Origin: Bacteroidota bacterium
GTDB lineage: Bacteria > Bacteroidota > Ignavibacteria > UBA10030
NCBI GenBank assembly: GCA_026416125.1
Contig: JAOAFT010000017.1
Coordinates: 1 to 48,458, forward strand
Direction: 5' to 3'
Length of the DNA stretch: 48,458 nt
The notes under the pieces are model-generated. The model made no database searches, was not told where the DNA came from, and was given only the letters and a program-made list of their open reading frames with translations. The position numbers and the translations under genes are program-made. Shown here in pieces: positions 27,869 to 45,885 of the stretch (the stretch's first letter is position 1; the number at the start of each line of letters is the position of its first letter).

Positions 27869-29650
27869 ATGTACTATCGAGCTCTTACAGAATTCCTTAT
27901 GGTTTTAGAAAAGCATGGTGAACTTTGTAGAATTACAAGACCAGTTGATCCACACCTAGAGATTACAGAAATTGCAGTACGCGCTGTTCGTGAACAAAAG
28001 CCTGCACTGCTCTTTGAAAATGTTAAAGGTTCACGGTATTCTTTAGCCATAAACGTTTACGCTTCTGAAAAGCGTATTGAGTTAGCCTTGGGGACTCATC
28101 CTGAACAACTTGGGGAAGAAATTTTACAATATGTAGAGCGATTCAATCCGCCCACGTTGAAAACTCTTTGGCATGAGCGACGTTTTTTGAAACGGTTGAT
28201 ATCAATTCGACCTCATTTTGTTAGTGGCGGTGTTGCTCAAGAAGTGGTTGAAAAAAAACCTACTCTCTCTGACTTACCGATACAGACCTGTTGGCCAAAG
28301 GATGGCGGTAAATTCATTACTCAGGGACAAGTTATTACATATCATCCTCGAACATGGCGAAGAAACGTTGGTGTCTACCGGATGCATGTGTTTGATGAAC
28401 GTACAACTGGGATGCATTGGCAAATTCAAAAGGGAGGAGGATTTCACTTTTCGGTTGCTGAAAACCTCAACCAAAGCCTTGAAGTAGCAGTTGCACTTGG
28501 AACTTCACCGGCATTGTATTTTGCATCAGTTGCAGCACTACCTGAAGATATAGACGAAGTTATTTTTGCGTCATTTCTTCAAAATAGACCAGTATCAATG
28601 ACATGCGCTAAAACACTTTCAATTCATGTACCAGCCGATGCTGAAATTATTCTCGAGGGAATTGTGTCGCCACATATGCGGAGACTCGAGGGTCCATTTG
28701 GTGATCACTTTGGACATTATTCAACAGTAGCGGAATTTCCAGTATTTCAACTCACCGCAATTACACACAGACGGTCTCCAATATATCCTGCAACAGTCGT
28801 TGGTATACCACCAATGGAAGACAAGTTTGTTGGTGATGCAACGCAACAAATTCTATCACCTTTAATTAAGGTGTTTTTTCATGAAGTTAATAAAATTTGG
28901 GCATACTACGAAGCTGGTTTTCATAATTTACTAGTTGCTGCTGTGAATGTACGATATAAGAAAGAAGCAATGAAGACCGCATGTGGTATCCTTGGAATGG
29001 GACAGTTATCATTAACAAAGTGCCTTATTCTTGTTTCGAGTAGCATCGATCCAAGGAACTGGCGATCGGTGTTACGTGAAATACGGGACAATTTTATTCC
29101 AGAGTGTGACCTTACGTTTCTCTCCCATGTTCCGATTGATACACTCGATTTTACAAGTGGGACATCAGAACTTGGTAGTAAAATAATTATCGATGCTACA
29201 AGGAAATTATATAGGCAACCTATTCACCGGGAAAGAAAAAAATTGTCCAACTTAGAACAAAAGGTGAGAGAACTTGATTCTCGAATTACAGCTGCTCGTT
29301 GTATGGAAGACTGTATGCTTATTGTCCAGTGTGAGAAAGATGGCCGTTCAATAGTTGAAACTTTAGTATCACACCCGGAACTCCAGGGATGTCCAATAGT
29401 TGTAGCAGTAAGCAGCGATATCAATGTGAATGATGATGAAAACGTTCTTTGGGGAATATTTACCCGTTTTGATTGTACACGGGATATTGTTGTGACAGAG
29501 AAAATGTTCGTTGGTTGTATGCCAGTGTACAAGGGTGTATTAGGCATAGATGCAACTCTGAAACAAGGGTATCCAGAGCCATTAAAAATGGATCCAAATG
29601 TTATACAACGAGTTAATGAGTATTGGGATAGTTTATGGAAAAACCGCTAA
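27869..29650 (+). CDS. ubiD: UbiD-family decarboxylase
   Basis: Prenyl-FMN-dependent decarboxylase that removes the carboxyl group from an aromatic acid. The 593-residue product has UbiD features: ITRPVDPHLEITEIA near the N-terminus, a central MEDKFVGDATQ region and EGPFGDHFGHYS near 272. In this cassette it probably acts on the prenylated or unprenylated dihydroxynaphthoic acid, but the order of the late steps is not decided by sequence. It overlaps the MqnE-MqnA gene by 16 bases, a strong coupling sign. It lies between UbiX and the radical SAM enzymes. Confidence 0.9.
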   Translation: MYYRALTEFLMVLEKHGELCRITRPVDPHLEITEIAVRAVREQKPALLFENVKGSRYSLAINVYASEKRIELALGTHPEQLGEEILQYVERFNPPTLKTLWHERRFLKRLISIRPHFVSGGVAQEVVEKKPTLSDLPIQTCWPKDGGKFITQGQVITYHPRTWRRNVGVYRMHVFDERTTGMHWQIQKGGGFHFSVAENLNQSLEVAVALGTSPALYFASVAALPEDIDEVIFASFLQNRPVSMTCAKTLSIHVPADAEIILEGIVSPHMRRLEGPFGDHFGHYSTVAEFPVFQLTAITHRRSPIYPATVVGIPPMEDKFVGDATQQILSPLIKVFFHEVNKIWAYYEAGFHNLLVAAVNVRYKKEAMKTACGILGMGQLSLTKCLILVSSSIDPRNWRSVLREIRDNFIPECDLTFLSHVPIDTLDFTSGTSELGSKIIIDATRKLYRQPIHRERKKLSNLEQKVRELDSRITAARCMEDCMLIVQCEKDGRSIVETLVSHPELQGCPIVVAVSSDINVNDDENVLWGIFTRFDCTRDIVVTEKMFVGCMPVYKGVLGIDATLKQGYPEPLKMDPNVIQRVNEYWDSLWKNR

Positions 29651-31503
29651 TACGATTTCGTGACAAACGACTTCAACTTATATGGGAAAAAGTCTCTACT
29701 GCTGAACGGTTAACGTTTGATGATGGGCATACACTCTTTCAAACAAATGATTTCTATGCTCTTGGAAAAATGGCACGGTATGTTCAGATGGTGAAAAATG
29801 GTGATGCTGTTTATTTTTCGCTCAATCAAAAAATAGAACCAACAAATATTTGTGTACTCACATGTAAGTTTTGTAATTTTGGAGTAACAAAATACCATCC
29901 TCGTGCATATGAATTAACAATTGATGCAATACTTAAAATGTTGAATGAACAAGTACGAGAAGTGCACATTACTGGGGCTTTGCATCCAGAATGGAGTTTT
30001 GAACACTATGTCCATATAATACGGGCAATTCGCGAACATTTCCCCCGCATTGGCATCAAAGCATTTACAGCAGTAGAAATATGGTACTTCCATAAGAAGT
30101 TCAACCTATCCATTGAGGAAGTGTTAAAACGTCTTCAAGAAGCGGGTGTTCAAGCATTACCAGGTGGTGGTGCAGAAGTATTTTCAGAACGTATTCACAA
30201 CGAACTATTTCCACAAAAATTGGGTGCAAAGGAATGGCTCTCAATTCACCGTACAGCACATTTACAGGGGTTACCTTCAAATGCAACAATTTTGTATGGA
30301 CATATCGAAACTATAGAAGAACGCGTGAATCATCTACTGCAAATTCGTTCATTGCAAGATGAAACAGGTGGCTTTTTATCATTTATTCCCCTTGCGTTCC
30401 AACCTGGTACAACGAAGATAAAGCCATACGCGTATCCTACTTCAGCACTCGATGATCTCAAAATGATCGCAGTATCACGACTCTTACTTGACAATGTACC
30501 TCACATAAAAGCTTATTGGGTAATGTCAACAGAAGAAGTGGCATCGGCAGCACTCAATTATGGAGCAGATGATCTTGAAGGTACTGTAGGTGGTGAACGG
30601 ATTGCTCACGATGCAGGGGCACGAACGCCAACCAAACTTTCAATAAATCGTATACTTTCACTCATTCGCGATGCCGGGAAAATTCCTGTTGAACGAGATA
30701 TTATGTACAATCCTATTGCAATACACTCACCAAACGTTATTGGCAAAATTCCATATTTAAATTCAGTTCCTTTTTTTACAAAATTTACGTCGTCATCCTT
30801 CAAACTCCTTCCCCTCATTCCTAAACAAATGGGTATTCTAGCAGAAAAGAAACAGCTTCTTGCAGGGTTATTTCCTCTTATCGAATATCTTCGTTTGAAG
30901 TCGATGCTACTCCCATTACCATATTGTCTTTCATCACGCGATCAAGTGAAAAGTGTGCTTCTCTTTTCAAATGAGGGGTGGAAGCAGTTAGAAGGGAAAA
31001 AAATTGGTGTCACAGATGCAACAGTTACTTCGGTAATGCTTCTCAAAGTACTCTTACGAGTAAAGTACAATGTGAACGCTCATATTGAGAGACTGCCACC
31101 AATGATGAGTTCATACACACACTATGATGCTGTGTTACTAATTGGCGATCAAGCATTAAAACATAAAAAAGATGCCTTAGGATATTTTGAGCTTATATTC
31201 GATCTAGCACACGAGTGGTACGAGTGGAAACGGCTCCCATTTGTCTTCGCACTATGGGCAATTCAAGCATCTGCTACAGAGGAAGAGAAATCAGCACTCC
31301 TGAACACATTGAATGAATCTATAGATTATGGCGAAAGAAACTTTGCCAAACTCTGTGGCTATCATGCAAAACAGTTGAAAATTTCTGAAATTGAGTGTAT
31401 AGAATACTTAGAAGGATTCAATTTTCGTATGGGTCAAAGAGAACTTGCTTCTATCCAAGAATTTGAACGATGTATCAGCGAACTTATAACAATCGAGCAC
31501 TAG
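29635..31503 (+). CDS. Fused aminofutalosine synthase (MqnE) and chorismate dehydratase (MqnA)
   Basis: A 622-residue protein joining two futalosine-pathway enzymes. Residues 1 to about 360 are a radical SAM enzyme with CxxxCxxC at Cys73, Cys77 and Cys80 (NICVLTCKFC) and the PGGGAEVFSERI block, typical of MqnE. Residues from about 369 on match MqnA: IGKIPYLNSVPFF, then AGLFPLIEYLR, then AVLLIGDQAL near 500 and LPFVFALWAI near 535. MqnA makes 3-enolpyruvylbenzoate from chorismate, which MqnE then joins to SAM-derived adenosine, so the fusion links successive steps. A misread stop between two genes is unlikely because the frame is continuous with no in-frame ambiguity. It overlaps ubiD by 16 bases. 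Confidence 0.9.
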   Translation: MEKPLIRFRDKRLQLIWEKVSTAERLTFDDGHTLFQTNDFYALGKMARYVQMVKNGDAVYFSLNQKIEPTNICVLTCKFCNFGVTKYHPRAYELTIDAILKMLNEQVREVHITGALHPEWSFEHYVHIIRAIREHFPRIGIKAFTAVEIWYFHKKFNLSIEEVLKRLQEAGVQALPGGGAEVFSERIHNELFPQKLGAKEWLSIHRTAHLQGLPSNATILYGHIETIEERVNHLLQIRSLQDETGGFLSFIPLAFQPGTTKIKPYAYPTSALDDLKMIAVSRLLLDNVPHIKAYWVMSTEEVASAALNYGADDLEGTVGGERIAHDAGARTPTKLSINRILSLIRDAGKIPVERDIMYNPIAIHSPNVIGKIPYLNSVPFFTKFTSSSFKLLPLIPKQMGILAEKKQLLAGLFPLIEYLRLKSMLLPLPYCLSSRDQVKSVLLFSNEGWKQLEGKKIGVTDATVTSVMLLKVLLRVKYNVNAHIERLPPMMSSYTHYDAVLLIGDQALKHKKDALGYFELIFDLAHEWYEWKRLPFVFALWAIQASATEEEKSALLNTLNESIDYGERNFAKLCGYHAKQLKISEIECIEYLEGFNFRMGQRELASIQEFERCISELITIEH

Positions 31504-31512
31504 GGTAAACGT

Positions 31513-32334
31513 ATGACAGAAATACTACTTAAACGATTCGAAGAACTCATTGAATCTGGGAATAAACTTGTTCCTCTCGGTGGATTTGAATTTTCTGGGT
31601 ATAATGCTCGCCTACAAAACACATATAGTGAATGGCGAAAAGCAAGTCTTGAACTCTTTGATCTTGTAGGTCCAATAGGGTTTCCTTATAAAAACAAAGT
31701 ACTGAGTGATTCGAATAGTGTATATTTCTACCAAACGTCGGCATTTCTTATTCTCAATGCACTCAAAGAATTATCGGAAAAACTTAAAGCAACACCAGAA
31801 CTCATTACGGAAAAATCAATTCTTGCTCAGGAACAAAAGGAGAGAGAGCAAGTCACGTTTCACCAAGAAGAAGGTGTAACGGTACTAAAACCACCACCGA
31901 AAAAACAACCACCGCAGCAACAGATATCGATTGCAGAGAGGAGTATTCGTAAAAAAGTCTACGTTATAGGTAATAAGAATGAACCACTTCGAGTACAGCT
32001 CTCAGAATTTCTTAAAGAGCTTGATATTGAAGAAGTAGTAATTGAACGTACACCTGGGAAAATGCTTCTACTTGACGAGATACAAGATAATCCCGACGTT
32101 CACTATGCTTTTTTCGTAGTTGATTCTCAGGATATAGCATATATCATGTTTGAGCTTGGTCATTTCGTTGGTAAACTTGGCAATGGGAAAGTAATGGTAC
32201 TGCATATGACAGATGTGCAATTCCCACGTGAAGTACCAGGTGTTACTGTGAAACCAATAGTTGTAAAATTAGAAGAGGCAAGTTTAGCAATTATAAAGGA
32301 ACTAAAAGCAGGAGGGTACTCAATCAACATTTAA
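31513..32334 (+). CDS. TIR-like nucleotide-binding domain protein (PF10137-like), unknown function
   Basis: A 273-residue protein in two parts. Residues 1 to about 95 are helical (LLKRFEELIESGNKL). A Pro/Gln-rich linker follows at 126-140 (KPPPKKQPPQQQ). Residues about 148-273 look like the TIR-like domain of PF10137: KKVYVIGNKNEPLRVQLSEFL, then DNPDVHYAFFVVDSQD, then FELGHFVGKLGNGKVMVL (213-230) and IIKELKAGGY near the end. In related domains a Glu lies in the position held here by Asp188 or Glu189, and the Arg/Gln-rich stretch before FELG is absent, so NADase activity is doubtful. No signal peptide. It is encoded nine bases after the MqnE-MqnA gene and is followed by mqnC. Confidence 0.72.
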   Translation: MTEILLKRFEELIESGNKLVPLGGFEFSGYNARLQNTYSEWRKASLELFDLVGPIGFPYKNKVLSDSNSVYFYQTSAFLILNALKELSEKLKATPELITEKSILAQEQKEREQVTFHQEEGVTVLKPPPKKQPPQQQISIAERSIRKKVYVIGNKNEPLRVQLSEFLKELDIEEVVIERTPGKMLLLDEIQDNPDVHYAFFVVDSQDIAYIMFELGHFVGKLGNGKVMVLHMTDVQFPREVPGVTVKPIVVKLEEASLAIIKELKAGGYSINI

Positions 32335-33512: not shown

Positions 33513-33665
33513 GTATTTGCAATAAGGAAGGAGCAATACGTATCGAGTTTTGATAAGGTATTGAATAAACTGGAAAAGAGCTGTGCAAGTAGACCTTTTC
33601 AAACTCGATATTGTACAAGTTGAGAGTGCCAGATGAAAAGGTACCACTTTTTATCTGGCTTTTTT
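33513..33665 (+). ncRNA. Candidate structured RNA or attenuated porU leader ending in an intrinsic terminator
   Basis: About 150 bases between the promoter and porU fold into a plain series of elements. A hairpin could form between GTATTTGC (33513-33520) and GCAATAC (33533-33539), with AAGGAAGG in its loop; its 5' arm may precede the transcription start. A long stem pairs TATCGAGTTT (33541-33550) exactly with AAACTCGATA (33601-33610), and AAGGT (33555-33559) pairs with ACCTT (33593-33597) inside it. The terminator at 33628-33665 closes the unit. No open frame fills this stretch. It could be a free small RNA or a riboswitch-like leader controlling the T9SS genes. I do not recognise the class. 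Confidence 0.6.
33628..33665 (+). terminator. Intrinsic terminator directly before porU
   Basis: GCCAGAT (33628-33634) pairs with ATCTGGC (33653-33659), extended by GAAAAG (33635-33640) with CTTTTT (33647-33652), giving 13 base pairs around the loop GTACCA, followed by six T residues. It overlaps an in-frame ATG at 33633, which therefore is not the porU start. Confidence 0.9.
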
Positions 33666-33668
33666 ATT

Positions 33669-36600
33669 ATGAAACACGTAGTGGCCTATATAGTATTACT
33701 TACAACTACTGTGCAGGTTGTTCTTGCACAAAACAGTATTCCACTTAGAATTGTTCAGCAAACACCTACTTTTGTAGACATTGAATTTAATCCCTCTGTA
33801 CGGCAATCTATACGGTTAGGTTCAGATGGCAAAGAGTATGGTTGGTATGATTTTGAGTATAGCCACATAGGAGTTGACTCACGTTCTGGATTGCTTTTTT
33901 TCTATGCGATGATTCCTGTAGTACTGCCAGATTCTTTCTGCACGATTCAAATTCTAACAACGGAAAGCTTTGAAACTCAGGTACTACCACCAAACGCAGA
34001 AGCACTGGGTATATCAAGTATCCAAAAGGAATTTAAGGAAGATAGAATTGCGTGGTTTACTGACTTTTCTCACTTCCACGAGTATACAGTTGCCTCGTTG
34101 ATTTTGAGACCAGTTGAGTTTATAGATGTTTCAAGAACTCGTCTTTACACAAAATTTGTTCTTCGGATACAAAGCACAAACGGACATCTATTTGCGAACA
34201 ATCCACTTGCACTCTGTCGGTGGAATACAGGATCAGAACTTGAAGCAACAAGTACTCGTACAATAAAGAAATTGACTGGAGTACCTTCACCCTTAGCAAC
34301 TGGAACATGGTATCGTTTTACTATTCAAGAGACAGGGATATATAAACTTGATTATTCATACTTTAAAAGTCAGAATATACCTGCTACGGTATGGAATAAC
34401 ATTAATGAAATAAGAATCTATGGGAATGGTGGTATTGTTGTACCACAAAATACTGGCCAACCGTATCCAGATGATTTGCAAGAAATTGCGAGACTCGTTG
34501 TAGACAACAATAAAAATGGAACGTTTGACACCGATGATTACATTCTTTTCTATGGTGTTACACCACGTATGTGGGTATATAAAGATAAAAGTATAACGCA
34601 TGTACTCCATCCATATACAGAAACAAACAACTGCTTTCTAACATCAACGCCAGGTATACCAGGGAAGGCGATGAGTGTACTCGAGTCAATATCCTCAAAT
34701 ACTATATTTCAACCAGCCTATTTTTTAGATGGGGTTTTTGTTGAACAAGAGAAGTATAACCTTATCAAGAGCGGTCGTCGCTGGGTAGGACAACGATTCG
34801 ATGCAAATACACAGTCAGCAATTTATACAAATACGCTCTATGGAATTATCTCTTCACTACCAATTGAGTATCGTTTTGTCTTCTATGTTAGATCGTCAAC
34901 ATCAGACGCTATGACCATAACAGAAAACGGGCAAAATCTTCTCACGATCTCCTTACCGTCGATGGTTGTTAACCAATCGGATAATCAAGGGTACTATGCG
35001 CAAACACGTCAGTATTCGTTTAAGACGATTCGACAAATTCCCGATAACAGAAGTGTCGTAAAATTTCAGTACTCACCAATGAATGCAAATGGAATTGCGT
35101 GGTTGGATTGGTTTGAAATTATTTACTATCGAAGTTTTGACGCTGTAAACAACTTTTTACTGTGGTGGGGGTACGATACTACTGGGTATGTCCAATATGA
35201 AGTGAAGAATTTATCATCCGCAGACGTATATGCTTTTGATGTAACAGAACATTCAAATGTAAAAGTGATTATCGGTTTACAGACTGAACCTGCAAACCCT
35301 ACTGTTAGACGGTTCACAGTATATCAAGCGGGTGGTACAATTCGACGTTTTGCTATTGTTGGATTAAACGGTACGAAAACACCAAGTACCGCTGAACGCG
35401 TTGATAATTCCAATCTCCATGGTGTAACAGATCGTATCGATTACATTATTATTACACCAAAAGAATTCGAAACAGAAGCAAATCGGTTGAAAAACCACAG
35501 AGAAACTCGTGATACAATCAGAACATTAGTAGCAACAATTGAAGCGGTTTACAATGAATTTTCTGGTGGACTTCAAGACCCCATGGCGATTCGAAATTTC
35601 CTGAAGTATGCATATGAACGGTGGCCTACACCTCCAAAGTATGTTCTCCTATTTGGAAGTGGTCACTATGACTATAAAAATATCACGACAACTCTAAAAA
35701 ATTGGATACCTCCATTCGAAACAGATGAGTCAAATTATCAAATTATGTCGTACTGTACCGATGATTCACTCGTTCTATGGGGAAATAGTTCAAGGGTAAT
35801 GATGGGGCTTGGACGTTTACCTGTGCGAACAAAAGCACAGGCAAAAAGTGTTGTTGACAAGATTATTCGATATGAAACAGAATCTCCCTTTGATGAATGG
35901 CGTAGTCGGATTACTTTTGTAGCAGATGATGAGTTTCCAACGCGTGTAGTAGGTGATTCTGCATCAACTACGAAGGAATATTTCCATGCTGAAGACACGG
36001 AAATTCTTGCCCGTGGCTATGTTCCGGCAACAATGGAAAAGAATAAAATTTTTCTTTCACAGTATCCAGACGTCATTACTGCTGCAGGACGGCGGAAACC
36101 AGGAGCGGCAGAGGCGCTTATCACAGCTATAAACAATGGAACGTTAATATTGAACTACGCTGGTCATGGTAATGAAACAGTCTGGGCTCACGAGGAAGTG
36201 TTTTCTCAATCTTCAACGTTACCCCAATTAACAAATCAACGGATGCTACTTCTCCTCATTGCTGCAACGTGTGACTTTGCTTTGTACGATGATCCTTCTG
36301 TGTTCAGTGCTGGAGAAGAATTTGTCACAATGGCAAATGGTGGAGCGATTGTAGGTATTTCTGCTGCTCGACCAGTCTATGCAAATCAGAACATTGCTCT
36401 CAACCGTGAAATACTTAGGCAATTGTTTTTACGTGATACATATGGGAATGTTCCAAGGATTGGCGATGTAATAAAGACAGTAAAGCAGTTCTATAACACA
36501 GTAAATGACAAAAAATACCATCTCTTTGGCGATCCAACTCTTCGTATTTTAATTCCGCGATACACTGTTGCAGTTGACTCTATTAATGATGAAAGTCCAA

Positions 36601-37616
36601 CGTCACTAGTTACGGTTAAAGCACTTGGAAAAATAAGAATAGCAAGTTCAGTACGAAGTAAAGATTCAAGTATTATTGAATCTTACAATGGCGATGCCAT
36701 AGTAAAGATTTATGGACCAACAAGGGTACTTCGATTTAATAATTGGCCGAAGTCCGATTCATTCCTTGTACATGGGGCAATTCTTTACAGTGGGAAAGTA
36801 TCAGTGCGGAATGGTACTATGATGGCGTTAGCACGTCTTCCTAAAGATGTCGTTATGGGAAATAATGCACGACTTGCAGTCTACTGTTGGGATAACAACA
36901 TAGATGGTATAGGTGTGACAGAAAACATTCTTATCAACGATATCGATACATCAGATGTCAGTGACTCGAGAGGACCCCAAGTCACAGTTTACTTTGATAA
37001 TGAGATGTTTCGAAATGGCGATGTTGTACCACAAACAACGAGGCTCATCGTACGAGTAGAAGATGAAAGTGGTGTTAATACATCAGTTCTTGGTATTGGA
37101 CATGGGCTCCGGGCATCCCTTGAACGACCACCCTCAGTAATTGATCTCAGTTCGTACTACAAGAATGATCGTGATACGTACCAACGTGGCGAAGCTCAAT
37201 ATGTACTACGAAATTTACCATTAGGGAAAAATTCTATCCGTGTAAAAGCTTGGGATATTCACAATAACTCAAGTGAAGTAGAGGTTGCATTTGAGGTTGT
37301 TGAGTATTCAAAAACAGAGATTACACGGATTAACAATTACCCAAATCCGTTTTCACAAAGTACATTCTTTACTTTTCAACGGAGTTCGGGTGATCCAATT
37401 GCAATTGAAATTAAAATATATACCCTCGCGGGTCGTCTTGTGAGAACTCTCTCTCTACCGGTTTTTACAGAACGGTACGGACGGATACTATGGGATGGGT
37501 ACGATACACATGGTGATAACGTTGCGAATGGTATTTATATATACAAAATTATTACAAAGGATTTGATAACGAATGATACTAAAGAATACATAGGGAAACT
37601 AGCACGTGTTCAATAA
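33669..37616 (+). CDS. porU: T9SS signal peptidase-like protein PorU (C25 family)
   Basis: PorU is a gingipain-family cysteine peptidase on the cell surface that removes the C-terminal sorting domain of T9SS cargo and joins cargo to the surface. The 1315-residue product begins with a signal peptide (MKHVVAYIVLLTTTVQVVLAQ). The C25 domain spans about residues 585-965, with catalytic His833 (NYAGHGNE) and Cys868 (AATCDF). The last 90 residues, from NNYPNPF near 1222 and with LAGRLVRTL, are themselves a T9SS sorting domain, as in known PorU. The start is taken as ATG 33669, just after the terminator; no ribosome site is clear. porV follows 42 bases downstream. Confidence 0.9.
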   Translation: MKHVVAYIVLLTTTVQVVLAQNSIPLRIVQQTPTFVDIEFNPSVRQSIRLGSDGKEYGWYDFEYSHIGVDSRSGLLFFYAMIPVVLPDSFCTIQILTTESFETQVLPPNAEALGISSIQKEFKEDRIAWFTDFSHFHEYTVASLILRPVEFIDVSRTRLYTKFVLRIQSTNGHLFANNPLALCRWNTGSELEATSTRTIKKLTGVPSPLATGTWYRFTIQETGIYKLDYSYFKSQNIPATVWNNINEIRIYGNGGIVVPQNTGQPYPDDLQEIARLVVDNNKNGTFDTDDYILFYGVTPRMWVYKDKSITHVLHPYTETNNCFLTSTPGIPGKAMSVLESISSNTIFQPAYFLDGVFVEQEKYNLIKSGRRWVGQRFDANTQSAIYTNTLYGIISSLPIEYRFVFYVRSSTSDAMTITENGQNLLTISLPSMVVNQSDNQGYYAQTRQYSFKTIRQIPDNRSVVKFQYSPMNANGIAWLDWFEIIYYRSFDAVNNFLLWWGYDTTGYVQYEVKNLSSADVYAFDVTEHSNVKVIIGLQTEPANPTVRRFTVYQAGGTIRRFAIVGLNGTKTPSTAERVDNSNLHGVTDRIDYIIITPKEFETEANRLKNHRETRDTIRTLVATIEAVYNEFSGGLQDPMAIRNFLKYAYERWPTPPKYVLLFGSGHYDYKNITTTLKNWIPPFETDESNYQIMSYCTDDSLVLWGNSSRVMMGLGRLPVRTKAQAKSVVDKIIRYETESPFDEWRSRITFVADDEFPTRVVGDSASTTKEYFHAEDTEILARGYVPATMEKNKIFLSQYPDVITAAGRRKPGAAEALITAINNGTLILNYAGHGNETVWAHEEVFSQSSTLPQLTNQRMLLLLIAATCDFALYDDPSVFSAGEEFVTMANGGAIVGISAARPVYANQNIALNREILRQLFLRDTYGNVPRIGDVIKTVKQFYNTVNDKKYHLFGDPTLRILIPRYTVAVDSINDESPTSLVTVKALGKIRIASSVRSKDSSIIESYNGDAIVKIYGPTRVLRFNNWPKSDSFLVHGAILYSGKVSVRNGTMMALARLPKDVVMGNNARLAVYCWDNNIDGIGVTENILINDIDTSDVSDSRGPQVTVYFDNEMFRNGDVVPQTTRLIVRVEDESGVNTSVLGIGHGLRASLERPPSVIDLSSYYKNDRDTYQRGEAQYVLRNLPLGKNSIRVKAWDIHNNSSEVEVAFEVVEYSKTEITRINNYPNPFSQSTFFTFQRSSGDPIAIEIKIYTLAGRLVRTLSLPVFTERYGRILWDGYDTHGDNVANGIYIYKIITKDLITNDTKEYIGKLARVQ

Positions 37617-37658: not shown

Positions 37659-38768
37659 ATGCAGAAAATTCTTTTAATTGTAATTATAACAATTCTATGT
37701 TTATCAGTTCTCCCAGCCCAAGAACTACAAACAACAGCGGTACCATTTCTCCTTATTGCTCCGAATTCGCGGGCAAGTGCCATGGGAGAAAGTGGTGTTG
37801 CAACAGCAGATGATGCATGGGCTATTTTTTGGAATCCTGCTGGATATGCTTTCCAAAAGGGTTCAGAAATTTCGATGTCACATGCGAACTGGCTTCCTGC
37901 TCTAGGCTTATCCGATTTATGGATTGCCCACCTCGTTTATAAGCAACCGGTTGAAGAATTGGATGGTATTGTAGCTGCATCGGTAACCTACGAAAACCTT
38001 GGTGAGTTTCAACGCACCCTCAATGACCCAACACCAATTGGTACATTCAAAGGATATGAAGCAGCACTTACACTTGGTTATAGCACAAAATTATCTAAAA
38101 CAGTAGGTATTGGTGTAAATACAAGAATTATTTACAGTCACTTAGCGGACAAAGGAACCGGTGAAGAAGCAGGGCGTGGTACTGCCACAGGATTCAGTTT
38201 CGATGTTGGGTTACTCTATAAACCAGAGCATGTTCTCATTCCATTCACAGGTATTGATTTGCAGAATGCGTTAAGTATTGGAGTCAATATTTCAAATATT
38301 GGTCCAAATATATATTACGTTGACAAAGAACAGGCAGATCCATTACCTCAAAATTTACGTTTTGGAGTTGCGTTTAATATTCTTAATGATGAGTACAATT
38401 CGTTAACAACTTCTCTTGAATTCAACAGACTTCTTGTGAATCGAGATACCTCTGCCAAAAAAGCCGACGAGTTCTACAAAGCGTTCTATACTACGTGGAC
38501 TGGCGGTTCATTGGCTCAACAACTTAGACGTTTCACAACTGCTGTAGGTATTGAGTATTGGTATGGATCACCGAAGCTCATCGCACTCCGTGCTGGATAC
38601 TTTTATGAGGATCCCCGCGCCGGTAATCGTAAGTTTATGACATTTGGTGCCGGAATTCGGTACGATATTTACGGATTCGATTTCAGCTACATTAGTACAG
38701 CCGAAGAGCAACACCCACTCGGGGAAACATTACGTTTTACATTGTCGATAGGTTGGGGTGGTGAGTAA
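37659..38768 (+). CDS. porV: T9SS outer-membrane protein PorV
   Basis: PorV is a FadL-like barrel that receives T9SS cargo from the translocon and works with PorU on the surface. The 369-residue product has a signal peptide (MQKILLIVIITILCLSVLPAQ) and the family start TTAVPFLLIAPNSRASAMGESGVA, followed by DDAWAIFWNPAGYA. Repeated beta strands end in an aromatic-rich barrel end (LRFTLSIGWGG). AAGGAG lies nine bases before the ATG. Its stop overlaps the GTG start of the M6-like gene by about 11 bases, so PorV and its neighbour are coupled. Confidence 0.93.
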   Translation: MQKILLIVIITILCLSVLPAQELQTTAVPFLLIAPNSRASAMGESGVATADDAWAIFWNPAGYAFQKGSEISMSHANWLPALGLSDLWIAHLVYKQPVEELDGIVAASVTYENLGEFQRTLNDPTPIGTFKGYEAALTLGYSTKLSKTVGIGVNTRIIYSHLADKGTGEEAGRGTATGFSFDVGLLYKPEHVLIPFTGIDLQNALSIGVNISNIGPNIYYVDKEQADPLPQNLRFGVAFNILNDEYNSLTTSLEFNRLLVNRDTSAKKADEFYKAFYTTWTGGSLAQQLRRFTTAVGIEYWYGSPKLIALRAGYFYEDPRAGNRKFMTFGAGIRYDIYGFDFSYISTAEEQHPLGETLRFTLSIGWGGE

Positions 38769-41700
38769 ATCAATTACTGGTAGAGTAGAGAGTGTAGTGA
38801 AAGTCGCTATCACAATGTGTGTTATCCTATCTTCTTTAGCAGTGGCGCAAACATCATTGCCACAGCTAATGAAAAAGAATGTACCATCAGGGCAAGTATT
38901 ACTCCAACGTTCGTCAATAAACATATTTGCACTTATGGTTCAATTTCAAAAAGATGATGATCCGCGTACGACAGGAGATGGTACATTTCTTACTACTGAA
39001 AAACGTATTGGCGTTATTGATCCTCCGCCACACGATTCAAATTACTTTTCAAATAAAATACGCTTCCAACAGAATTACTTTTCTAAAGTTTCCAATAACC
39101 ATCTTACAATTGTAGGTACTGTTTGGGGTAAAGTTCTTACACTCTCCAAGCCAATGTCGGCATACGCACCACCAACTGATCGAGATGACTACCAAAAACT
39201 TATCGAATGTATTACTGAAAGCTGGCGAATGGCTGATTCATTATATCCTGAAATTGATTTTAGCCAATACGATGCCTTTGTTATTTTCCATGCTGGTACT
39301 GGGCGAGATATCGACTTGGTGAATCTTCTAGGGTATAATCCAACACCCTATGATCTCCCTTCACTCTTTGTCGATTCAACTCTTTTTGCAAAGTCATTGA
39401 ATCAAAATACTTTCAATGGAATTCCGGTCGATAGCGGAACTGTGCGCATTAAACACACAATCTTTTTACCAGAAACCGAGTCAAGAATCCTTCCAACAAG
39501 CCCACCAGAAACATTGCAGTTGAGCATCAATGGGTTGTTTGCAGGTATGATAGGTAGTTTCTTGGGGTTACCCGATCTTTTTGATACGAAAACCGGTCGT
39601 TCTGGTATAGGTCAATTTGGGTTAATGGATGGTGCTGGTATGTTTGCCTACAGCGGACTTTTTCCACCAGAACCATCTGCTTGGGAAAAGATAGAACTAG
39701 GGTGGGTAGTTCCTCTTACTATTCAGCGCTCATCAACAATAACGCTTTTTTCTGGTAATAGACGAAATAATATCACAGGAACTATCATTAAAGTACCAAT
39801 TAGTGATACTGAATATTTTCTACTCGAAAACAGAAGTAGAGATCCAGATGATAATGGACAAACAGTCACTGTAGTTGATCAGTTCGGAAGAGAAAGAAAT
39901 ATATACTTTAGAAAAGATACAATAGGTTTTAACCAGTACGATGTTTCTGCTATCCATGGTTCAGTAGTTGATGTTGAGGACTTTGACTGGGCACTACCTG
40001 GATACATCGATTCTACTCATTATTACGATGGTGGTGGGATTCTCATTTGGCATATTGATGATAGAATTATAAAACAAAATCGAGAAACAAATACAGTCAA
40101 TGCTACTAGATCTGCAAAAGGTGTTCGACTAATGGAAGCAGATGGTTCTCAAGATATCGGACAACAGTATGGACAATATACAGCTGGTGCGGGGACTGAG
40201 TATGGAAGCCCACTCGATTGTTGGTACAAAGAAAATCGAGCACCGTTTTATAAAAATCAATTTGATGGTACAACATATCCAAATTCAAACAGTAATACTG
40301 GTGCGAAAAGTTTAATTGCAATACGGAATTTTAGTAGTCGTTCCCCAATCATGACCTGTGAAGTGGAAATTGGAATAATCGGAGTAACTCCAATCGATAA
40401 ATTAACGCGTTCTTTCAAAATAGGGAGAGCAATTGCTGTTCAGGATTCATTTATTTTCCTATTAGCTGATTCTTTACTATATCTTTTGAAAACCAGTGGT
40501 GATTCCGCTGTCCAGTCGTACAAGGGAGCACTATCCACAAATAGTAAAGCTCAAGATATAGCTGCAAAATTTCTAACACAAAACATTTTGCTTGTGGTTT
40601 CATCAGGTGGTTCGGATATAACTTTACAGAAACTTTATGATACAAATAACGACGGAGTATTTGAGAGTTGGGATGTCAGTTCATGGTCTCTTCGATCTTC
40701 AGAGGTTACAACAACGCCGGTAATATTTGAAAACTCAAATAGTACACTTGTTTTGGTTGGAGATTCGAGAGGGTGTCTCTGGTTTTTCGACACGAGTGGT
40801 GTTTGTAGAGATTCTCTAATCGTTGCTCATTTGCCTATTACGTCGTTAATGGTACTAGATACCATGTGGTATGCGTGTGCAGGTAATACTGTTTATTGTA
40901 AAACTCATTCTGTAGTTACGGGGTTACAGAATACTTCATGTATACTCGTTGGTCTTAAGGAGCACGGGTCGTCATATCTTGCCGTTACAACTAGAGGGTC
41001 TAATGCACTTCAAATATATACAAGTGATCTTCGTACACTTCGTTGGAGTGGAGTTCTTCCCGTTGATAGTATTGGTGCAATTGTTGCAGGTGATATAAAC
41101 TCAGATGGTTTCACAGAAATACTTATAAGTGGTGGCAATAAACTAGTAGCAATTAGTACCAATGGTGCGATAGCAGAACATTACCCTATTGAACTTTTCG
41201 ATGGGAGCCTCTTTGCAGAATCTCCTTTACTTATAGATTGTACGAATGATGATATTCCTGAAATTATTACTTCAACATCACGGGGAAGTATCGTGGTTTA
41301 CAATTCTGTTGGGAACATTTTAAATGGTTATCCTTTCCAAGTTGCATCTGAAAGTGCACAGCTTGTCGTGGGAAATATTCAAAATCATATTGCACTGTGT
41401 GCTTTTACAGAAAATGGTTATTTAACAGGAATTAAAATCGAACAACCCTGTCCAAAGTTAGAAACATACTGGACACAACGGTATCGAAATTCGCAGCGAA
41501 TAAATGCAACAGATCAACCAACAACACAGATACGTCGGTATAGTACGTTTTTTCCTGAGGAACGTGTTTACAATTGGCCAAATCCTGTGTATGGGAATCG
41601 AACATATATCAGGTACTACATATCGGAAGATGCTGATATAAACGTGAAAATTTTTGACTTGGCTGGTACATCCGTTACAACAATAAAAAGTAAAGGATAT

Positions 41701-41829
41701 GGCGGATACGACAATGAAATTGTCTGGGATGTTACGCACATTCAGAGCGGTATTTATTTTGCCCACATCGAAGCACGAAGCCCACAGTACACAGCTTCAA
41801 AAGTGATTAAAATTGCAGTAGTAAAATGA
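38758..41829 (+). CDS. T9SS-sorted M6-like peptidase homologue lacking the zinc-binding motif
   Basis: A 1023-residue secreted protein with a signal segment (VVKVAITMCVILSSLAVAQ), an M6 (immune inhibitor A-like) domain to about residue 470, FG-GAP/VCBS-like repeats (VAGDINSDGFTEILISGG) and a T9SS sorting domain from YNWPNPVYGNRTYIRY near 945 to the end. Active M6 enzymes carry HExxH followed by xxGLPDLYD. Here the same place reads AGMIGSFLGLPDLFD (residues 262-275): His, Glu and second His are Gly263, Met264 and Ser267, so zinc binding is not expected. Start codon GTG 38758 or 38761. The protein is probably a binding or structural pseudo-enzyme. Confidence 0.85.
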   Translation: MVSKSITGRVESVVKVAITMCVILSSLAVAQTSLPQLMKKNVPSGQVLLQRSSINIFALMVQFQKDDDPRTTGDGTFLTTEKRIGVIDPPPHDSNYFSNKIRFQQNYFSKVSNNHLTIVGTVWGKVLTLSKPMSAYAPPTDRDDYQKLIECITESWRMADSLYPEIDFSQYDAFVIFHAGTGRDIDLVNLLGYNPTPYDLPSLFVDSTLFAKSLNQNTFNGIPVDSGTVRIKHTIFLPETESRILPTSPPETLQLSINGLFAGMIGSFLGLPDLFDTKTGRSGIGQFGLMDGAGMFAYSGLFPPEPSAWEKIELGWVVPLTIQRSSTITLFSGNRRNNITGTIIKVPISDTEYFLLENRSRDPDDNGQTVTVVDQFGRERNIYFRKDTIGFNQYDVSAIHGSVVDVEDFDWALPGYIDSTHYYDGGGILIWHIDDRIIKQNRETNTVNATRSAKGVRLMEADGSQDIGQQYGQYTAGAGTEYGSPLDCWYKENRAPFYKNQFDGTTYPNSNSNTGAKSLIAIRNFSSRSPIMTCEVEIGIIGVTPIDKLTRSFKIGRAIAVQDSFIFLLADSLLYLLKTSGDSAVQSYKGALSTNSKAQDIAAKFLTQNILLVVSSGGSDITLQKLYDTNNDGVFESWDVSSWSLRSSEVTTTPVIFENSNSTLVLVGDSRGCLWFFDTSGVCRDSLIVAHLPITSLMVLDTMWYACAGNTVYCKTHSVVTGLQNTSCILVGLKEHGSSYLAVTTRGSNALQIYTSDLRTLRWSGVLPVDSIGAIVAGDINSDGFTEILISGGNKLVAISTNGAIAEHYPIELFDGSLFAESPLLIDCTNDDIPEIITSTSRGSIVVYNSVGNILNGYPFQVASESAQLVVGNIQNHIALCAFTENGYLTGIKIEQPCPKLETYWTQRYRNSQRINATDQPTTQIRRYSTFFPEERVYNWPNPVYGNRTYIRYYISEDADINVKIFDLAGTSVTTIKSKGYGGYDNEIVWDVTHIQSGIYFAHIEARSPQYTASKVIKIAVVK

Positions 41830-44800
41830 AAATCGCCATTCGAGTTATAATTCAAATGACCTACAATATAACTGTGCTTCTTTTTATTTTCTGTGTAACG
41901 AATGTGTTTGCACAAGAGAGCTATAATCACCCAGAACTCGATTGGTTTACAATTGAAACTAAACACTTCTTTGTCCATTACCATAAGGGAACGGAACGCA
42001 CTGCACGTGAAGTCGCTAAGATTGCTGAAACAATATATCCAACAATAACCTCGCTGTACAATCATACTCCAGATCAAAAAGTAACGTTCATCATACGCGA
42101 TCACGATGATTACTCAAACGGTGCGTCCTACTTCTATGATAACAAAATTGAAATATGGGCACCAGCACTTGACTTTCATTTTCGAGGTGTTCATCCATGG
42201 TTATGGAATGTTGTAACGCATGAATTTACTCATCTCATACAAATTCAAACACTTATGAAGTTTGGAAGGAAGGTCCCATCCGTTTACTTCCAGTGGTTAA
42301 GCTATGAGAAGGAGTATCGTCCTGATGTCCTTTATGGATATCCCAACGTACTAGTATCGTATCCTCTATCAGGATTTGTATTACCAAGTTGGTTTGCTGA
42401 AGGTGTAGCACAATACAATGCGCCTGAGTACACATTCGATTATTGGGATACACACCGTGATATGCTTCTTCGTACAGCAATTCTCCACGGTACTCTCCTT
42501 TCGTGGGATGAAATGTCTGTTTTTGGGAAAAACAGCCTTGGTAATGAATCCGCGTATAATGCTGGTTTTTCACTTGTCAAGTACATTGCTGAATCGTACG
42601 GTGTGGATAAACTTGCGTCTCTCTCGCGAGAGCTTGGAAAATTACATCGTCTAACAATCGATGAAGCTTTACAAAACGTGTTAGGAAAAAGTGGAAAAGA
42701 GTTATATGCAGAATGGAAAGCAGAGAAAGAACAATACTACAAAAAGCTTATCGATTCACTCCAAACACAAGATGTCAATGGAGAAGTAATTGAAGCAGAT
42801 GGTTTCGGGAATTTTTACCCGGTATTTTCAAGATCAGGCAAATTCATTGCATATGTTTCAAACAAAGGACGCGATTACTTGACTGCAAGTAGTTTGTACC
42901 TTTACAATCAAGAAATGCAAGAAGTAAAACTCTTAGTGCAGAATGTTCACTCTACACTATCATTCTCTCCAGATGATAGATACATTTACTATTCAAAAGT
43001 ATCATCACAGAATAAGCATCGGTCAAATTTCAGTGATCTGTATAGGTATGATATTGTTGAGCAGAAAGAAGAACGATTAACATATGGCCTTCGTGCTGCA
43101 AATCCAAAAATATCTCCTGATGGAAAAACGATTGTTTTTGTGTTTGGAAACGACGGCACTTTGAATCTCGGACTATGTCAGAACAATGGAAAAGGCATTC
43201 GATCGATAACGAATTTTAGAGATGGCGAACAAGTATTTACACCGTCATGGTCACATGATGGAGAAAAAATCGTTTTTGGTTTTTCGAGTGGTCACTGTCA
43301 GCATATTGCAAGCATTGATACGTCAGGAAATTATTTTACGATACTCATTAAAAATGGTGATAGCCGTCACCCTACGTTTTCATGTAATGGTGAATCTATA
43401 ATATTTTCATGGGATAAAACAGGTATATTTAATCTTTATGAGCTTTCACTTACCGATTCGACAATTAGGCAAATTACCAATGTTACCGGTGGTGCATTTG
43501 CACCATCTGCTAATAAACAGGGAGATATTGTCTATGCACTATATACAAAATCAGGTTATTCAATAGCACTGTTAAAAAACAAGGAATGTTATACGTCAGA
43601 GTGCTTTCAGATAAGTTCCCTTCAACGAGATAGTACGTGTAGAGATAGTACGTATAAATGTTCCAATGAGTTACCACCAACTGTAACAGAAGAAATATCG
43701 GAATCAAAGTCATATCGTTCACGGTTTACAAGTGTTTCACTAATACCATTCTTGAGACTTGATCAGTATAACAAGCGAGAAGGTCTCGATATCATAAAAC
43801 CTGGATTCTACGTTACTTCAAACGAAGTACTCGATAATATGTCGTTATTCGGTGGAATTGCTATAAATCGCAAGTATGAGCGGGATATATTTGTAATTTT
43901 TGAGTATCGAAATCGATTACCATTACTATACCAATTTGGTCTCGCACCAACTGCAACATTGGAACTGTATAGTGTTTCACGGACGTTAGAGTACGAATTC
44001 AATCTCTATATCAATCGACTTGAAAAATTTCAAACAAATGTAGAATTCAACTTGTTTGAATTTGATGCATCGTTGTCACATCCCTTTGTATCGTTAAATA
44101 ATAGCATCGAAGTTCGTTATATTTACTCGCGGTATAATCAAAACTTTGGAAGTTGGCTCCATCCAACGTATGGTGTTATACCCGCTTCACGAATGACATA
44201 TTTAAAGAGTAATACACTTGTACTATCATTTAAACATGATGGAATACTCCCTGCATCTGATATGGCAATAAATCCGAAAGGACGGACAATTACACTAAAA
44301 TATTCTTATGAAATGAATCGATATAATCCAAATGATAGTGCGGAATATAAGAATGGTCTCCGTGTGCCTGTATATATACCATATAATTTACATCGTTTAG
44401 AACTTTCATGGCGAGAACATTTACCACTGCCATTAAAAAACCACGTTCTTGCACTTTCAATTCGCAGTGGTTCTATTCTCGGAAACACAGTAGATAATTT
44501 TTTTGATTTCTATGCCGGCGGATTTATCGGTATGCGCGGATATCCTTTCTATGCAGTAAGTGGAAACGAAATGCTGGTTACTCAAATAGCCTATCGATTT
44601 CCTCTAAGTACTGAACTTAACACTCGATTGTTACATTTATACTTTAAACGACTTTATGGAATTATTTTTTACGATTTTGGAAATGCATGGAGTGGGAAAA
44701 CACCAGCTATCAAGCAGTGGAAGTCTGATGTCGGATTTGAATTACGTTTAGAAACATTTTCATGGTACGTATACCCGACACGTGTTTTTTTTAGTGGGGC

Positions 44801-44939
44801 CTATGGATTACGATCATTCACTCGTACTATAGAAACACTGTCACACACTACAATACAGTACGGCGGCGAATGGAGATTCTATTTAGGAGTACTCTTTGAT
44901 TTTGAAATATCGGATGTATCACGTTATATCAGACATTAG
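41826..44939 (+). CDS. Gluzincin peptidase / TolB-like beta-propeller / Omp85-like beta-barrel fusion
   Basis: A 1037-residue outer-membrane protein with a signal peptide ending near VFAQ (residue 30). Residues about 35-300 are a gluzincin-type metallopeptidase domain with an intact HEFTH motif (His132, Glu133, His136) and a downstream Glu in SWFAEGVAQY (Glu192) as third ligand. Residues about 325-620 are repeats of TolB/WD40-like type (FSPDDRYIYYSK, ISPDGKTIVFVFG). The last part is a barrel with the Omp85-like motifs GGFIGMRGYPFY and IIFYDFGNAWSG. The start overlaps the previous gene by four bases. The peptidase and propeller are probably periplasmic or surface-exposed; substrate unknown. 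Confidence 0.85.
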   Translation: MKIAIRVIIQMTYNITVLLFIFCVTNVFAQESYNHPELDWFTIETKHFFVHYHKGTERTAREVAKIAETIYPTITSLYNHTPDQKVTFIIRDHDDYSNGASYFYDNKIEIWAPALDFHFRGVHPWLWNVVTHEFTHLIQIQTLMKFGRKVPSVYFQWLSYEKEYRPDVLYGYPNVLVSYPLSGFVLPSWFAEGVAQYNAPEYTFDYWDTHRDMLLRTAILHGTLLSWDEMSVFGKNSLGNESAYNAGFSLVKYIAESYGVDKLASLSRELGKLHRLTIDEALQNVLGKSGKELYAEWKAEKEQYYKKLIDSLQTQDVNGEVIEADGFGNFYPVFSRSGKFIAYVSNKGRDYLTASSLYLYNQEMQEVKLLVQNVHSTLSFSPDDRYIYYSKVSSQNKHRSNFSDLYRYDIVEQKEERLTYGLRAANPKISPDGKTIVFVFGNDGTLNLGLCQNNGKGIRSITNFRDGEQVFTPSWSHDGEKIVFGFSSGHCQHIASIDTSGNYFTILIKNGDSRHPTFSCNGESIIFSWDKTGIFNLYELSLTDSTIRQITNVTGGAFAPSANKQGDIVYALYTKSGYSIALLKNKECYTSECFQISSLQRDSTCRDSTYKCSNELPPTVTEEISESKSYRSRFTSVSLIPFLRLDQYNKREGLDIIKPGFYVTSNEVLDNMSLFGGIAINRKYERDIFVIFEYRNRLPLLYQFGLAPTATLELYSVSRTLEYEFNLYINRLEKFQTNVEFNLFEFDASLSHPFVSLNNSIEVRYIYSRYNQNFGSWLHPTYGVIPASRMTYLKSNTLVLSFKHDGILPASDMAINPKGRTITLKYSYEMNRYNPNDSAEYKNGLRVPVYIPYNLHRLELSWREHLPLPLKNHVLALSIRSGSILGNTVDNFFDFYAGGFIGMRGYPFYAVSGNEMLVTQIAYRFPLSTELNTRLLHLYFKRLYGIIFYDFGNAWSGKTPAIKQWKSDVGFELRLETFSWYVYPTRVFFSGAYGLRSFTRTIETLSHTTIQYGGEWRFYLGVLFDFEISDVSRYIRH

Positions 44940-44952
44940 GTGAGATTGAGCT

Positions 44953-45885
44953 ATGATAAGAATATTTCTCAGTACGGTATGTGTAATAACCCAATTCGCA
45001 ATAGCACAAATGAACTGCGATAACATGGCACTATGTGTTAAGAATAATTACTATATCAGTGGTAGTTTAAAGAATGATCTTTGTGCAAATAGAGAATCGT
45101 ACTATATAAATTATAATACAGCAATGGAGCAGTCGACGGTAAAACAAAAATACTCTCCGCTGAAAGCAGCATTGTTCTCAGCTGTAATACCAGGTGCAGG
45201 ACAATTTTATACGAAGAGTTATTTTCAAAGCGCATTGTTTTTTAGTGCTGAAGTTCTTTTCTGGATACTTTATGTTCAATATAACCGAAAGGGGTACATT
45301 CAAACTGAGAATTTTGAGCGATTTGCTGATGAACATTGGTCTGTCCTTCGATATACTCGCTGGATTGAAACATTTTACCCAGCACAGTTTGATCCAAGTG
45401 TTATTCTCGGTAATCCATCGAATGATGTTCATAATCCGTGGGAGTATATCAATTGGAGTAAGCTTAATGAAGTCGAAGATAAAATAAGCCAATTAGCAAC
45501 TCAAGGGCAAGTAACAGGATTTACACATCGATTACCACAACGACCAGAACAACAGTACTATGAACTGATAGGGAAGTATTCACAGTACGGTAGTGGTTGG
45601 GATGATGCATCTTATTTTACACCTAGTGATGTACTGACAAGCAATGTTTCACCACGATTTCGCAGCTATAGCCAAATGCGAGGTAGAGCAAACGACCTTT
45701 ATGCAGTTGCAACTACTGCTACGTATTTGATTGTAGCAAACCATATCGCCAATGCTTTGGAAGCAGCATGGAATGCAGCAAGAATCAATAAGAAATTAGT
45801 AACGAAAAGTTCATTTGATATAAAGCAGCGCGGACACTACTACCATCTTGAAGCAAATGTAACATTATCACTAGAAGTTCAGTAA
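44953..45885 (+). CDS. DUF5683 family membrane protein
   Basis: A 310-residue product with a signal peptide (MIRIFLSTVCVITQFAIAQ). The conserved region KYSPLKAALFSAVIPGAGQFY, near residue 65, is the DUF5683 signature, and a hydrophobic segment follows (SALFFSAEVLFWILYV) with a second near residue 260. DUF5683 is found in FCB bacteria and has no known function. It lies 13 bases after the barrel fusion and is the last gene of the T9SS-linked run. Confidence 0.82.
   Translation: MIRIFLSTVCVITQFAIAQMNCDNMALCVKNNYYISGSLKNDLCANRESYYINYNTAMEQSTVKQKYSPLKAALFSAVIPGAGQFYTKSYFQSALFFSAEVLFWILYVQYNRKGYIQTENFERFADEHWSVLRYTRWIETFYPAQFDPSVILGNPSNDVHNPWEYINWSKLNEVEDKISQLATQGQVTGFTHRLPQRPEQQYYELIGKYSQYGSGWDDASYFTPSDVLTSNVSPRFRSYSQMRGRANDLYAVATTATYLIVANHIANALEAAWNAARINKKLVTKSSFDIKQRGHYYHLEANVTLSLEVQ

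What the first reader, a model, noticed from the sequence alone, without database searches (positions are those of the whole stretch)
39544..39558. Zinc motif lost in the T9SS-linked M6 protein
The HExxH site expected in M6 peptidases is GMIGS here (residues 263-267) although the surrounding GLPDLFD and the rest of the domain are kept. The gene is coupled to porV and ends in a T9SS sorting domain. It may be a cell-surface pseudo-peptidase with a binding role, perhaps a helper for secretion.
Basis: partly seen in the sequence, partly recalled or inferred. Interest (0 to 1): 0.66.

Follow-up and report, generated by a model that had tools for sequence, protein, structure and literature searches.

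The report
Ancient dead protease beside PorV
This gene makes a surface-secreted protein built on a protease fold whose metal-binding active site was lost long ago; the dead version is kept next to a secretion-shuttle gene in nearly all relatives examined, so it probably works by holding on to something rather than cutting it.

Summary
In detail: residues 263-267 of the 1023-aa protein at 38758-41829 are GMIGS where an M6 peptidase has HExxH. It is neither a sequencing error nor a local decay. All three catalytic residues are missing in 105 of 105 orthologues of the same class (window included), 80 of 80 named relatives (overlapping set) and 20 of 20 from other families, while 9 of 9 intact M6 controls keep HExxH. 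The fold is still M6 (model vs InhA2, Z 22.6), and the ex-active-site region is the protein's most conserved stretch, with new fixed residues N258 and D291. NCBIfam already holds the family (NF052323, 'T9SS-dependent M6-like inactivated metalloprotease'), so the pseudo-peptidase call is not new; I found no paper on it. What I add: the gene follows porV wherever the flank is visible in the class; 78 of 78 M6i genomes of a phylum sample have PorV; and five near-complete genomes keep M6i, PorV and SprA although PorU and PorZ are not detected. So M6i goes with the PorV shuttle rather than with the sortase, and it is not a PorZ substitute. Most likely role: a PorV-bound surface binding protein; ligand unknown.

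The parts
33633..37616 (+). porU, type IX secretion sortase (C25 peptidase), first gene of the set
   Evidence: NF033707 907 bits, PF01364 E 5.8e-91
37659..38768 (+). porV, outer-membrane shuttle/channel protein
   Evidence: NF033710 274.4 bits over cut-off 250; PF19572 E 3e-40
38758..41829 (+). M6i: T9SS-dependent inactivated M6-like protein, 1023 aa, GTG start, overlaps porV by 11 nt
   Evidence: NF052323 836.1 bits, cut-off 600, full length
38758..38847 (+). signal peptide, residues 1-30 (LAVA|Q), Q31 at the predicted new N-terminus
   Evidence: sequence and model helix 9-32; Q31 at 90% or more in alignment A1; cleavage site inferred
38923..40377 (+). pseudo-M6 peptidase domain, residues 56-540
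   Evidence: model of residues 50-540: pLDDT 93.2, pTM 0.94; best structural match InhA2 4yu5 Z 22.6, rmsd 3.6, 379 residues
39529..39531 (+). N258, M6i-specific invariant residue (I/V in intact M6 controls)
   Evidence: N in 105/105, 21/21 and 81/81 rows; controls I or V in 9/9
39544..39558 (+). dead zinc motif GMIGS in place of HExxH, residues 263-267
39565..39585 (+). retained GLPDLFD; D273 at the usual +10 ligand position kept
   Evidence: D273 in 105/105 and 81/81, 21/21; ligand role recalled from HExxHxxGxxD peptidases
39628..39630 (+). D291, M6i-specific residue directly after the Met-turn-like M290 (A/C in intact M6 controls)
   Evidence: D in 104/104, 21/21, 81/81 scored rows; controls A 8, C 1 of 9; 'Met-turn' is a recalled label
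40378..41448 (+). beta-propeller, residues 541-897, poorly conserved in sequence
   Evidence: Z 29.9 to Sqt1, about 28 to BamB and designed 8-bladed propellers; mean relative entropy 1.00 for 541-915
41569..41826 (+). type A T9SS C-terminal sorting domain, residues 938-1023
   Evidence: PF18962 and TIGR04183 over cut-off; seven strands in the model
41826..44939 (+). next gene (PMA): Peptidase_MA_2-like zincin with intact HEFTH plus PD40/TolB-like propeller; often follows M6i
   Evidence: HExxH kept in 81 of 81 homologues
44953..45885 (+). DUF5683 protein, frequent last gene of the set
   Evidence: PF18935 E 1.5e-9

Best explanation
The gene encodes an ancient, fixed pseudo-peptidase (M6i) that is a partner of the T9SS shuttle PorV. 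Shown: an M6/InhA fold without the zinc histidines or the catalytic glutamate, a propeller, and a type A sorting domain; gene position directly after porV; strong conservation of the ex-active-site region with new invariant residues; persistence with PorV and SprA in genomes where PorU and PorZ are not detected. Inferred: the protein enters the periplasm by Sec, leaves through SprA, is caught by PorV through its sorting domain and stays there uncleaved as a surface subunit. The rebuilt cleft (N258, S267, D273, D291) then binds a ligand, most likely an extended polypeptide such as emerging cargo or a partner protein, so that M6i works as a binding or holding factor of the shuttle, not as a peptidase or a sortase subunit.
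For: Dead motif in 105/105, 80/80 and 20/20 (first two sets overlap). Region 250-316 is the most conserved of the protein: mean relative entropy 3.17 against 1.77 overall, 99 full-length HMM-found sequences. N258 and D291 are fixed in M6i but I/V and A/C in 9 intact M6s. PorV directly upstream in 103 of 105 class loci and 75 of 80 named loci; the 7 others are cut within 345 bp upstream of M6i. PorV upstream in 19 of 20 out-of-class loci, 6 of them without PorU just upstream. Phylum sample of 198: 78 of 78 M6i genomes have PorV, 73 PorU, 72 PorZ. Five M6i genomes (99-100% complete) lack PorU and PorZ hits and show 0 of 5 C25 domains, against 4 of 4 PorU-bearing controls, while SprA is present in 5 of 5. 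In 3 of the 5 porU is missing from between thiolase and porV while M6i is intact with its sorting domain. Type A sorting domains are carried by PorV, and type B substrates are often encoded beside their cognate shuttle (PMC12618676, passages).
Against: No direct evidence of PorV binding, surface location or ligand. Distance matrices of 23 genomes correlate best between M6i and PorU (0.93), then PMA (0.90), then PorV (0.84) (not corrected for shared ancestry). One of 20 out-of-class loci (L272) has M6i away from PorV. 76 of 154 PorV genomes lack M6i, so PorV does not need it. The M6i sorting domain shows no extra hairpin like that of the uncleaved PorU and PorZ domains (PMC11285876, passages), although that paper finds the hairpin functionally irrelevant. 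Absence of PorU/PorZ rests on HMM thresholds in mostly draft genomes.
Confidence: 0.5

Rival explanations
1. M6i is an accessory of the sortase/attachment complex (PorU-PorV-PorQ-PorZ), for instance presenting cargo or lipopolysaccharide to PorU.
For: porU-porV-M6i order is the rule (87 of 105 class loci show all three; many others are cut); PorU and M6i distances correlate best, 0.93; propeller plus sorting domain recalls PorZ, and the full-length model finds PorZ 5m11 at Foldseek rank 5.
Against: Five genomes keep M6i where PorU, PorZ and any C25 domain are not detected; 57 genomes of the sample have PorU and PorZ without M6i; PorZ is present beside M6i in the own genome.
Confidence: 0.2
2. 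M6i is the partner or regulator of the zincin-propeller protein encoded next (PMA), a dead peptidase controlling a live one.
For: PMA usually follows M6i and keeps HExxH in 81 of 81; in genome G263 M6i and PMA are both missing between porV and DUF5683; porU loci of M6i-less genomes showed no PMA (20 loci).
Against: Several families carry M6i without PMA next to it (for example L040, L041, L055-L061 and L264-L268); whether PMA lies elsewhere there was not tested.
Confidence: 0.15
3. M6i is an ordinary surface cargo (adhesin or carbohydrate binder) that only happens to be encoded after porV.
For: It has a standard type A sorting domain and a variable propeller; no binding partner is known.
Against: One match per genome at E <= 1e-60 in 78 of 78, the same place after porV across the families sampled and retention in a 1.7 Mb genome (G115) are unusual for cargo.
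Confidence: 0.1
4. M6i is still an enzyme, with another metal or another catalytic set (D273, D291, N258, H178).
For: Invariant polar residues stay around the lost site.
Against: H178 is also kept in 8 of 9 intact M6 controls, so it is no new ligand; no residue set typical of another hydrolase was recognised; no coordinates could be measured.
Confidence: 0.05

Closest known systems
NCBIfam NF052323, T9SS-dependent M6-like inactivated metalloprotease (T9SSA_dep_M6i)
   Same: Full-length match over the curated cut-off, dead M6 motif, type A sorting domain
   Different: Nothing that I can see; the model gives a name but no function, and no paper was found
Peptidase family M6 (immune inhibitor A, InhA2)
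   Same: Fold (Z 22.6 over 379 residues), GLPDLFD context, D273, Met-turn-like M290
   Different: No HExxH; TIGR03296 below its cut-off (64.7 against 110.8); new invariant N258 and D291
PorZ of the T9SS attachment complex
   Same: Propeller architecture and a type A sorting domain on a T9SS-exported protein
   Different: One propeller plus a pseudo-peptidase instead of two propellers; only the sorting domain matches the PorZ profile; both occur in the same genome
Type B substrate and PorP/SprF shuttle gene pairs of Flavobacterium johnsoniae
   Same: Exported protein encoded next to the shuttle that carries it (PMC12618676, passages)
   Different: Type A sorting domain and PorV here; the gene order is shuttle first

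Membership tests
NF052323 T9SSA_dep_M6i | full-length profile match over 600 bits | tested here: met
   836.1 bits, residues 17-1023, profile 7-1043
NF052323 T9SSA_dep_M6i | inactivated zinc motif | tested here: met
   GMIGS; 105/105 orthologues without H, E, H
NF052323 T9SSA_dep_M6i | type A T9SS sorting domain in a T9SS genome | tested here: met
   TIGR04183 28.7 bits over 23; SprA, PorU, PorV in the own genome
Peptidase M6 (active) | M6 fold | tested here: met
   InhA2 4yu5 Z 22.6, rmsd 3.6, 379 residues; next unrelated-entry match Z 9.2
Peptidase M6 (active) | HExxH zinc-binding and catalytic motif | tested here: not met
Peptidase M6 (active) | TIGR03296 or PF05547 over cut-off | tested here: not met
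   TIGR03296 64.7 against 110.8; no PF05547 hit for the window, 14 of 62 sequences of A3 hit it at E <= 0.01
Peptidase M6 (active) | zinc content and peptidase activity | not testable with these tools
   needs protein
T9SS attachment complex subunit (PorZ-like) | PorZ profile over the whole protein | tested here: not met
   only residues 935-1023 match, 14.4 bits against 260
T9SS attachment complex subunit (PorZ-like) | co-inheritance with PorU and PorZ | tested here: not met
   5 M6i genomes without PorU and PorZ hits, 57 with both and no M6i
PorV partner | gene next to porV and PorV in every M6i genome | tested here: met
   103/105 and 75/80 with the 7 others cut, 19/20 outside the class, 78/78 genomes
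PorV partner | physical binding to PorV, uncleaved sorting domain | not testable with these tools
   no complex prediction on hand

The most novel reading that the evidence does not exclude
M6i is an unrecognised, sortase-independent surface component of the T9SS translocation/shuttle stage in a large part of the phylum (Ignavibacteria and other lineages): a peptidase fold rebuilt into a PorV-bound holding subunit, whose former zinc site grips emerging cargo or caps idle PorV.
Probability: 0.3. Interest if true: 0.68.

Novelty: new member of a known kind. Interest (0 to 1): 0.48.

Why it matters
The T9SS papers seen here concern mainly Porphyromonas and Flavobacterium and do not describe M6i. 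A conserved dead peptidase fixed beside porV in Ignavibacteria and other lineages suggests that T9SS variants outside the model organisms have a surface component nobody has studied. The genomes that keep M6i where PorU and PorZ are not detected give a ready way to separate shuttle functions from sortase functions. It would also be a clean case of an active site turned into a conserved binding site.

Tried and rejected
PorZ substitute: rejected, because PorZ is over its cut-off in 127 of 149 class genomes, the own genome included, and present in 72 of 78 M6i genomes of the phylum sample.

Local decay or sequencing error: rejected by the same dead motif in all relatives and by the open frame.

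Intact M6 at the same place in M6i-less genomes: not found. In 20 porU loci chosen from genomes without a strong M6i hit, no M6i or M6 label stands beside porU-porV. L111, L120, L127 and L129 showed no PorV beside PorU.

Sequence search of PDB with the M6i profile gave propellers and the PorZ sorting domain but no M6 peptidase; the M6 relation came from the separately folded domain. The full-length fold search was swamped by propellers. Foldseek alone ranked OgpA first for the domain at E 7.8e-5 and did not list InhA2 in its first 50 rows.

Own-genome search with PF05547 rang nowhere, also not in the controls, so it says nothing.

Conservation in alignment A2 was repeated on the HMM-found set, because A2 loci had been fetched by two conserved peptides, one of them in this very region. 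Four of 13 TIGR03296 loci (L139-L141, L143) gave no ORF with HE.GH and were left out of the control set; whether those M6 proteins are also altered was not followed. Mirror-tree correlations do not single out PorV and are not used as support. Paper searches for M6i or an inactive T9SS M6 protein found none. The search for cowrin/immune inhibitor A structure papers gave two papers, neither on InhA, so the third-ligand role of D273 is recalled. The model's coordinates were not in the Python box, so no distance around the dead site was measured.

Full report
Observation. The window holds porU (33633-37616), porV (37659-38768) and, overlapping the porV stop by 11 nt, a 1023-aa ORF from GTG 38758 to 41829. 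Codons 263-267 at 39544-39558 read GMIGS, followed by FLGLPDLFD.

What it is. Against NCBIfam the protein matches NF052323, 'T9SS-dependent M6-like inactivated metalloprotease', with 836.1 bits over the whole length (cut-off 600). The active M6 domain model TIGR03296 stays below its cut-off (64.7 against 110.8), with its best stretch starting just after the dead motif. Pfam sees only the T9SS sorting domain over its cut-off. So a curated family already exists and already says 'inactivated'. I found no paper on it.

How old the loss is. The NF052323 profile exceeds its cut-off in 101 of 149 genomes of the class. I took the 30 loci and 80 regions (six of them re-fetches), which with the window gives 105 loci. 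Of 109 M6i sequences found in them, 4 fragments lack the motif columns. In all 105 others position 263 is A, S, G or N, position 264 S, N, T, M or Q, and position 267 S, T or N; the LPDL of GLPDLFD is kept in 105 of 105. Eighty named relatives (Ignavibacteria, Melioribacteraceae, Kryptonia, Thermochlorobacter, Chloroherpetonaceae) also show 80 of 80 dead motifs; this set shares genomes with the first. Twenty loci from families outside the class, including four under the profile's cut-off, show 20 of 20. Nine intact M6 proteins from the same class keep H, E and H in 9 of 9. No relative with a live site was met, so the loss probably precedes the spread of the family.

Fold. A model of the whole protein has mean pLDDT 90.3 and pTM 0.86. 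Residues 541-897 form a propeller (Z 29.9 to Sqt1, about 28 to BamB and designed eight-bladed propellers). The domain 50-540 folded alone has pLDDT 93.2 and pTM 0.94; its best match among Foldseek's candidates is the M6 peptidase InhA2 (4yu5, Z 22.6, rmsd 3.6, 379 residues), well above the next protein at Z 9.2. The fold is therefore kept although the motif is gone.

Selection on the dead site. On 99 full-length sequences found by profile, residues 250-316 have mean relative entropy 3.17, against 2.53 for the sorting domain, 2.30 and 2.15 for the rest of the peptidase-like domain, 1.00 for the propeller and 1.77 overall. N258 is N in every scored row (105, 21 and 81 rows) and D291 is D in every scored row (104, 21, 81), whereas the nine intact M6s have I/V and A/C there. 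D273, the usual third ligand position (recalled), is kept in all. H178 and H432 are also common in intact M6s, so they are not a new zinc site. This pattern fits a site kept for another purpose, not a relic. An alternative metal site cannot be excluded.

Genome context. PorV lies directly upstream on the same strand in 103 of 105 class loci and 75 of 80 named loci; in the 7 others the stretch ends within 345 bp of M6i. Outside the class it is upstream in 19 of 20, and in six of these PorU is not just upstream; the exception is L272. In 20 porU loci from class genomes without a strong M6i hit, no M6i label stands after porV.

Which machine part it follows. In a phylum sample of 198 genomes M6i (E <= 1e-60) is found in 78, always as one match; PorV (E <= 1e-30) in 154, PorU (E <= 1e-100) in 136, PorZ (E <= 1e-40) in 129. 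All 78 M6i genomes have PorV, 73 have PorU and 72 have PorZ; 76 genomes have PorV without M6i, and 57 have PorU and PorZ without M6i. Five M6i genomes of one family (G195, G210, G231, G239, G278) show neither PorU nor PorZ and no C25 domain (0 of 5; 4 of 4 PorU-bearing controls ring), but all five have SprA. Their sorting-domain counts are 8, 7, 32, 26 and 18, against 66, 60, 18 and 55 in the four controls. Three PorU-bearing genomes of the same family carry metB-thiolase-porU-porV-M6i; three of the five carry metB-thiolase-porV-M6i with a dead motif and an intact sorting domain; G263, of the same genus as G210, has metB-thiolase-porV-DUF5683, with porU, M6i and the next gene all missing. So M6i outlasts the sortase but travels with PorV and the translocon. 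That PorU was lost, not never gained, is inferred from the gene order.

Mechanism. Known: type A sorting domains are carried by PorV, and PorU, PorZ and PorA keep their domains uncleaved; the attachment complex is PorU:PorV:PorQ:PorZ (passages of PMC12618676, PMC11285876, PMC5562754). The simplest reading is that M6i is exported, caught by PorV and held there, presenting a rebuilt cleft and a propeller at the surface. Export is inferred from the signal peptide and sorting domain; holding on PorV and ligand binding are inferences with moderate support. Against it: distance correlations favour PorU (0.93) over PorV (0.84) in 23 genomes without correction for ancestry, and half of the PorV genomes do without M6i.

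Verdict. The association with PorV and not with the sortase, and the newly fixed residues at the dead site, are what this work adds. The function remains to be tested.

Noticed in passing
window 41826-44939 (+): The gene after M6i joins a Peptidase_MA_2 zincin with intact HEFTH to a TolB-like PD40 propeller and a long C-terminal stretch that looks like an outer-membrane barrel (my reading); HExxH is kept in 81 of 81 homologues.
   Followed up: partly
L279 (genome G263) compared with L280 (genome G210): In G263 porU, M6i and the zincin-propeller gene are all missing between thiolase and DUF5683 while porV and SprA stay, a possible joint loss of M6i and its downstream neighbour.
   Followed up: partly
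genomes G195, G210, G231, G239, G278 (L270, L271, L280-L282): Near-complete T9SS genomes with SprA, PorV and sorting-domain proteins but no detectable PorU, PorZ or C25 domain: T9SS that may work without a sortase.
   Followed up: partly
window 31513-32334 (+): A 273-aa ORF with a CAP12/Pycsar-effector TIR domain match (PF10137, E 9.8e-9, residues 148-248) sits between two radical-SAM menaquinone-type genes.
   Followed up: no
window 29635-31503 (+): A 622-aa ORF fuses a radical-SAM/CofH-like part to a VitK2_biosynth (MqnA/MqnD-like) part.
   Followed up: no
L129 (genome G129): A class genome whose family-mates have M6i shows a PorU gene without PorV or M6i beside it; it may be a second PorU locus or a loss.
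   Followed up: no
L139-L141, L143: Four M6-domain loci over the TIGR03296 cut-off gave no ORF with HE.GH; other altered M6 proteins may exist in this class.
   Followed up: no
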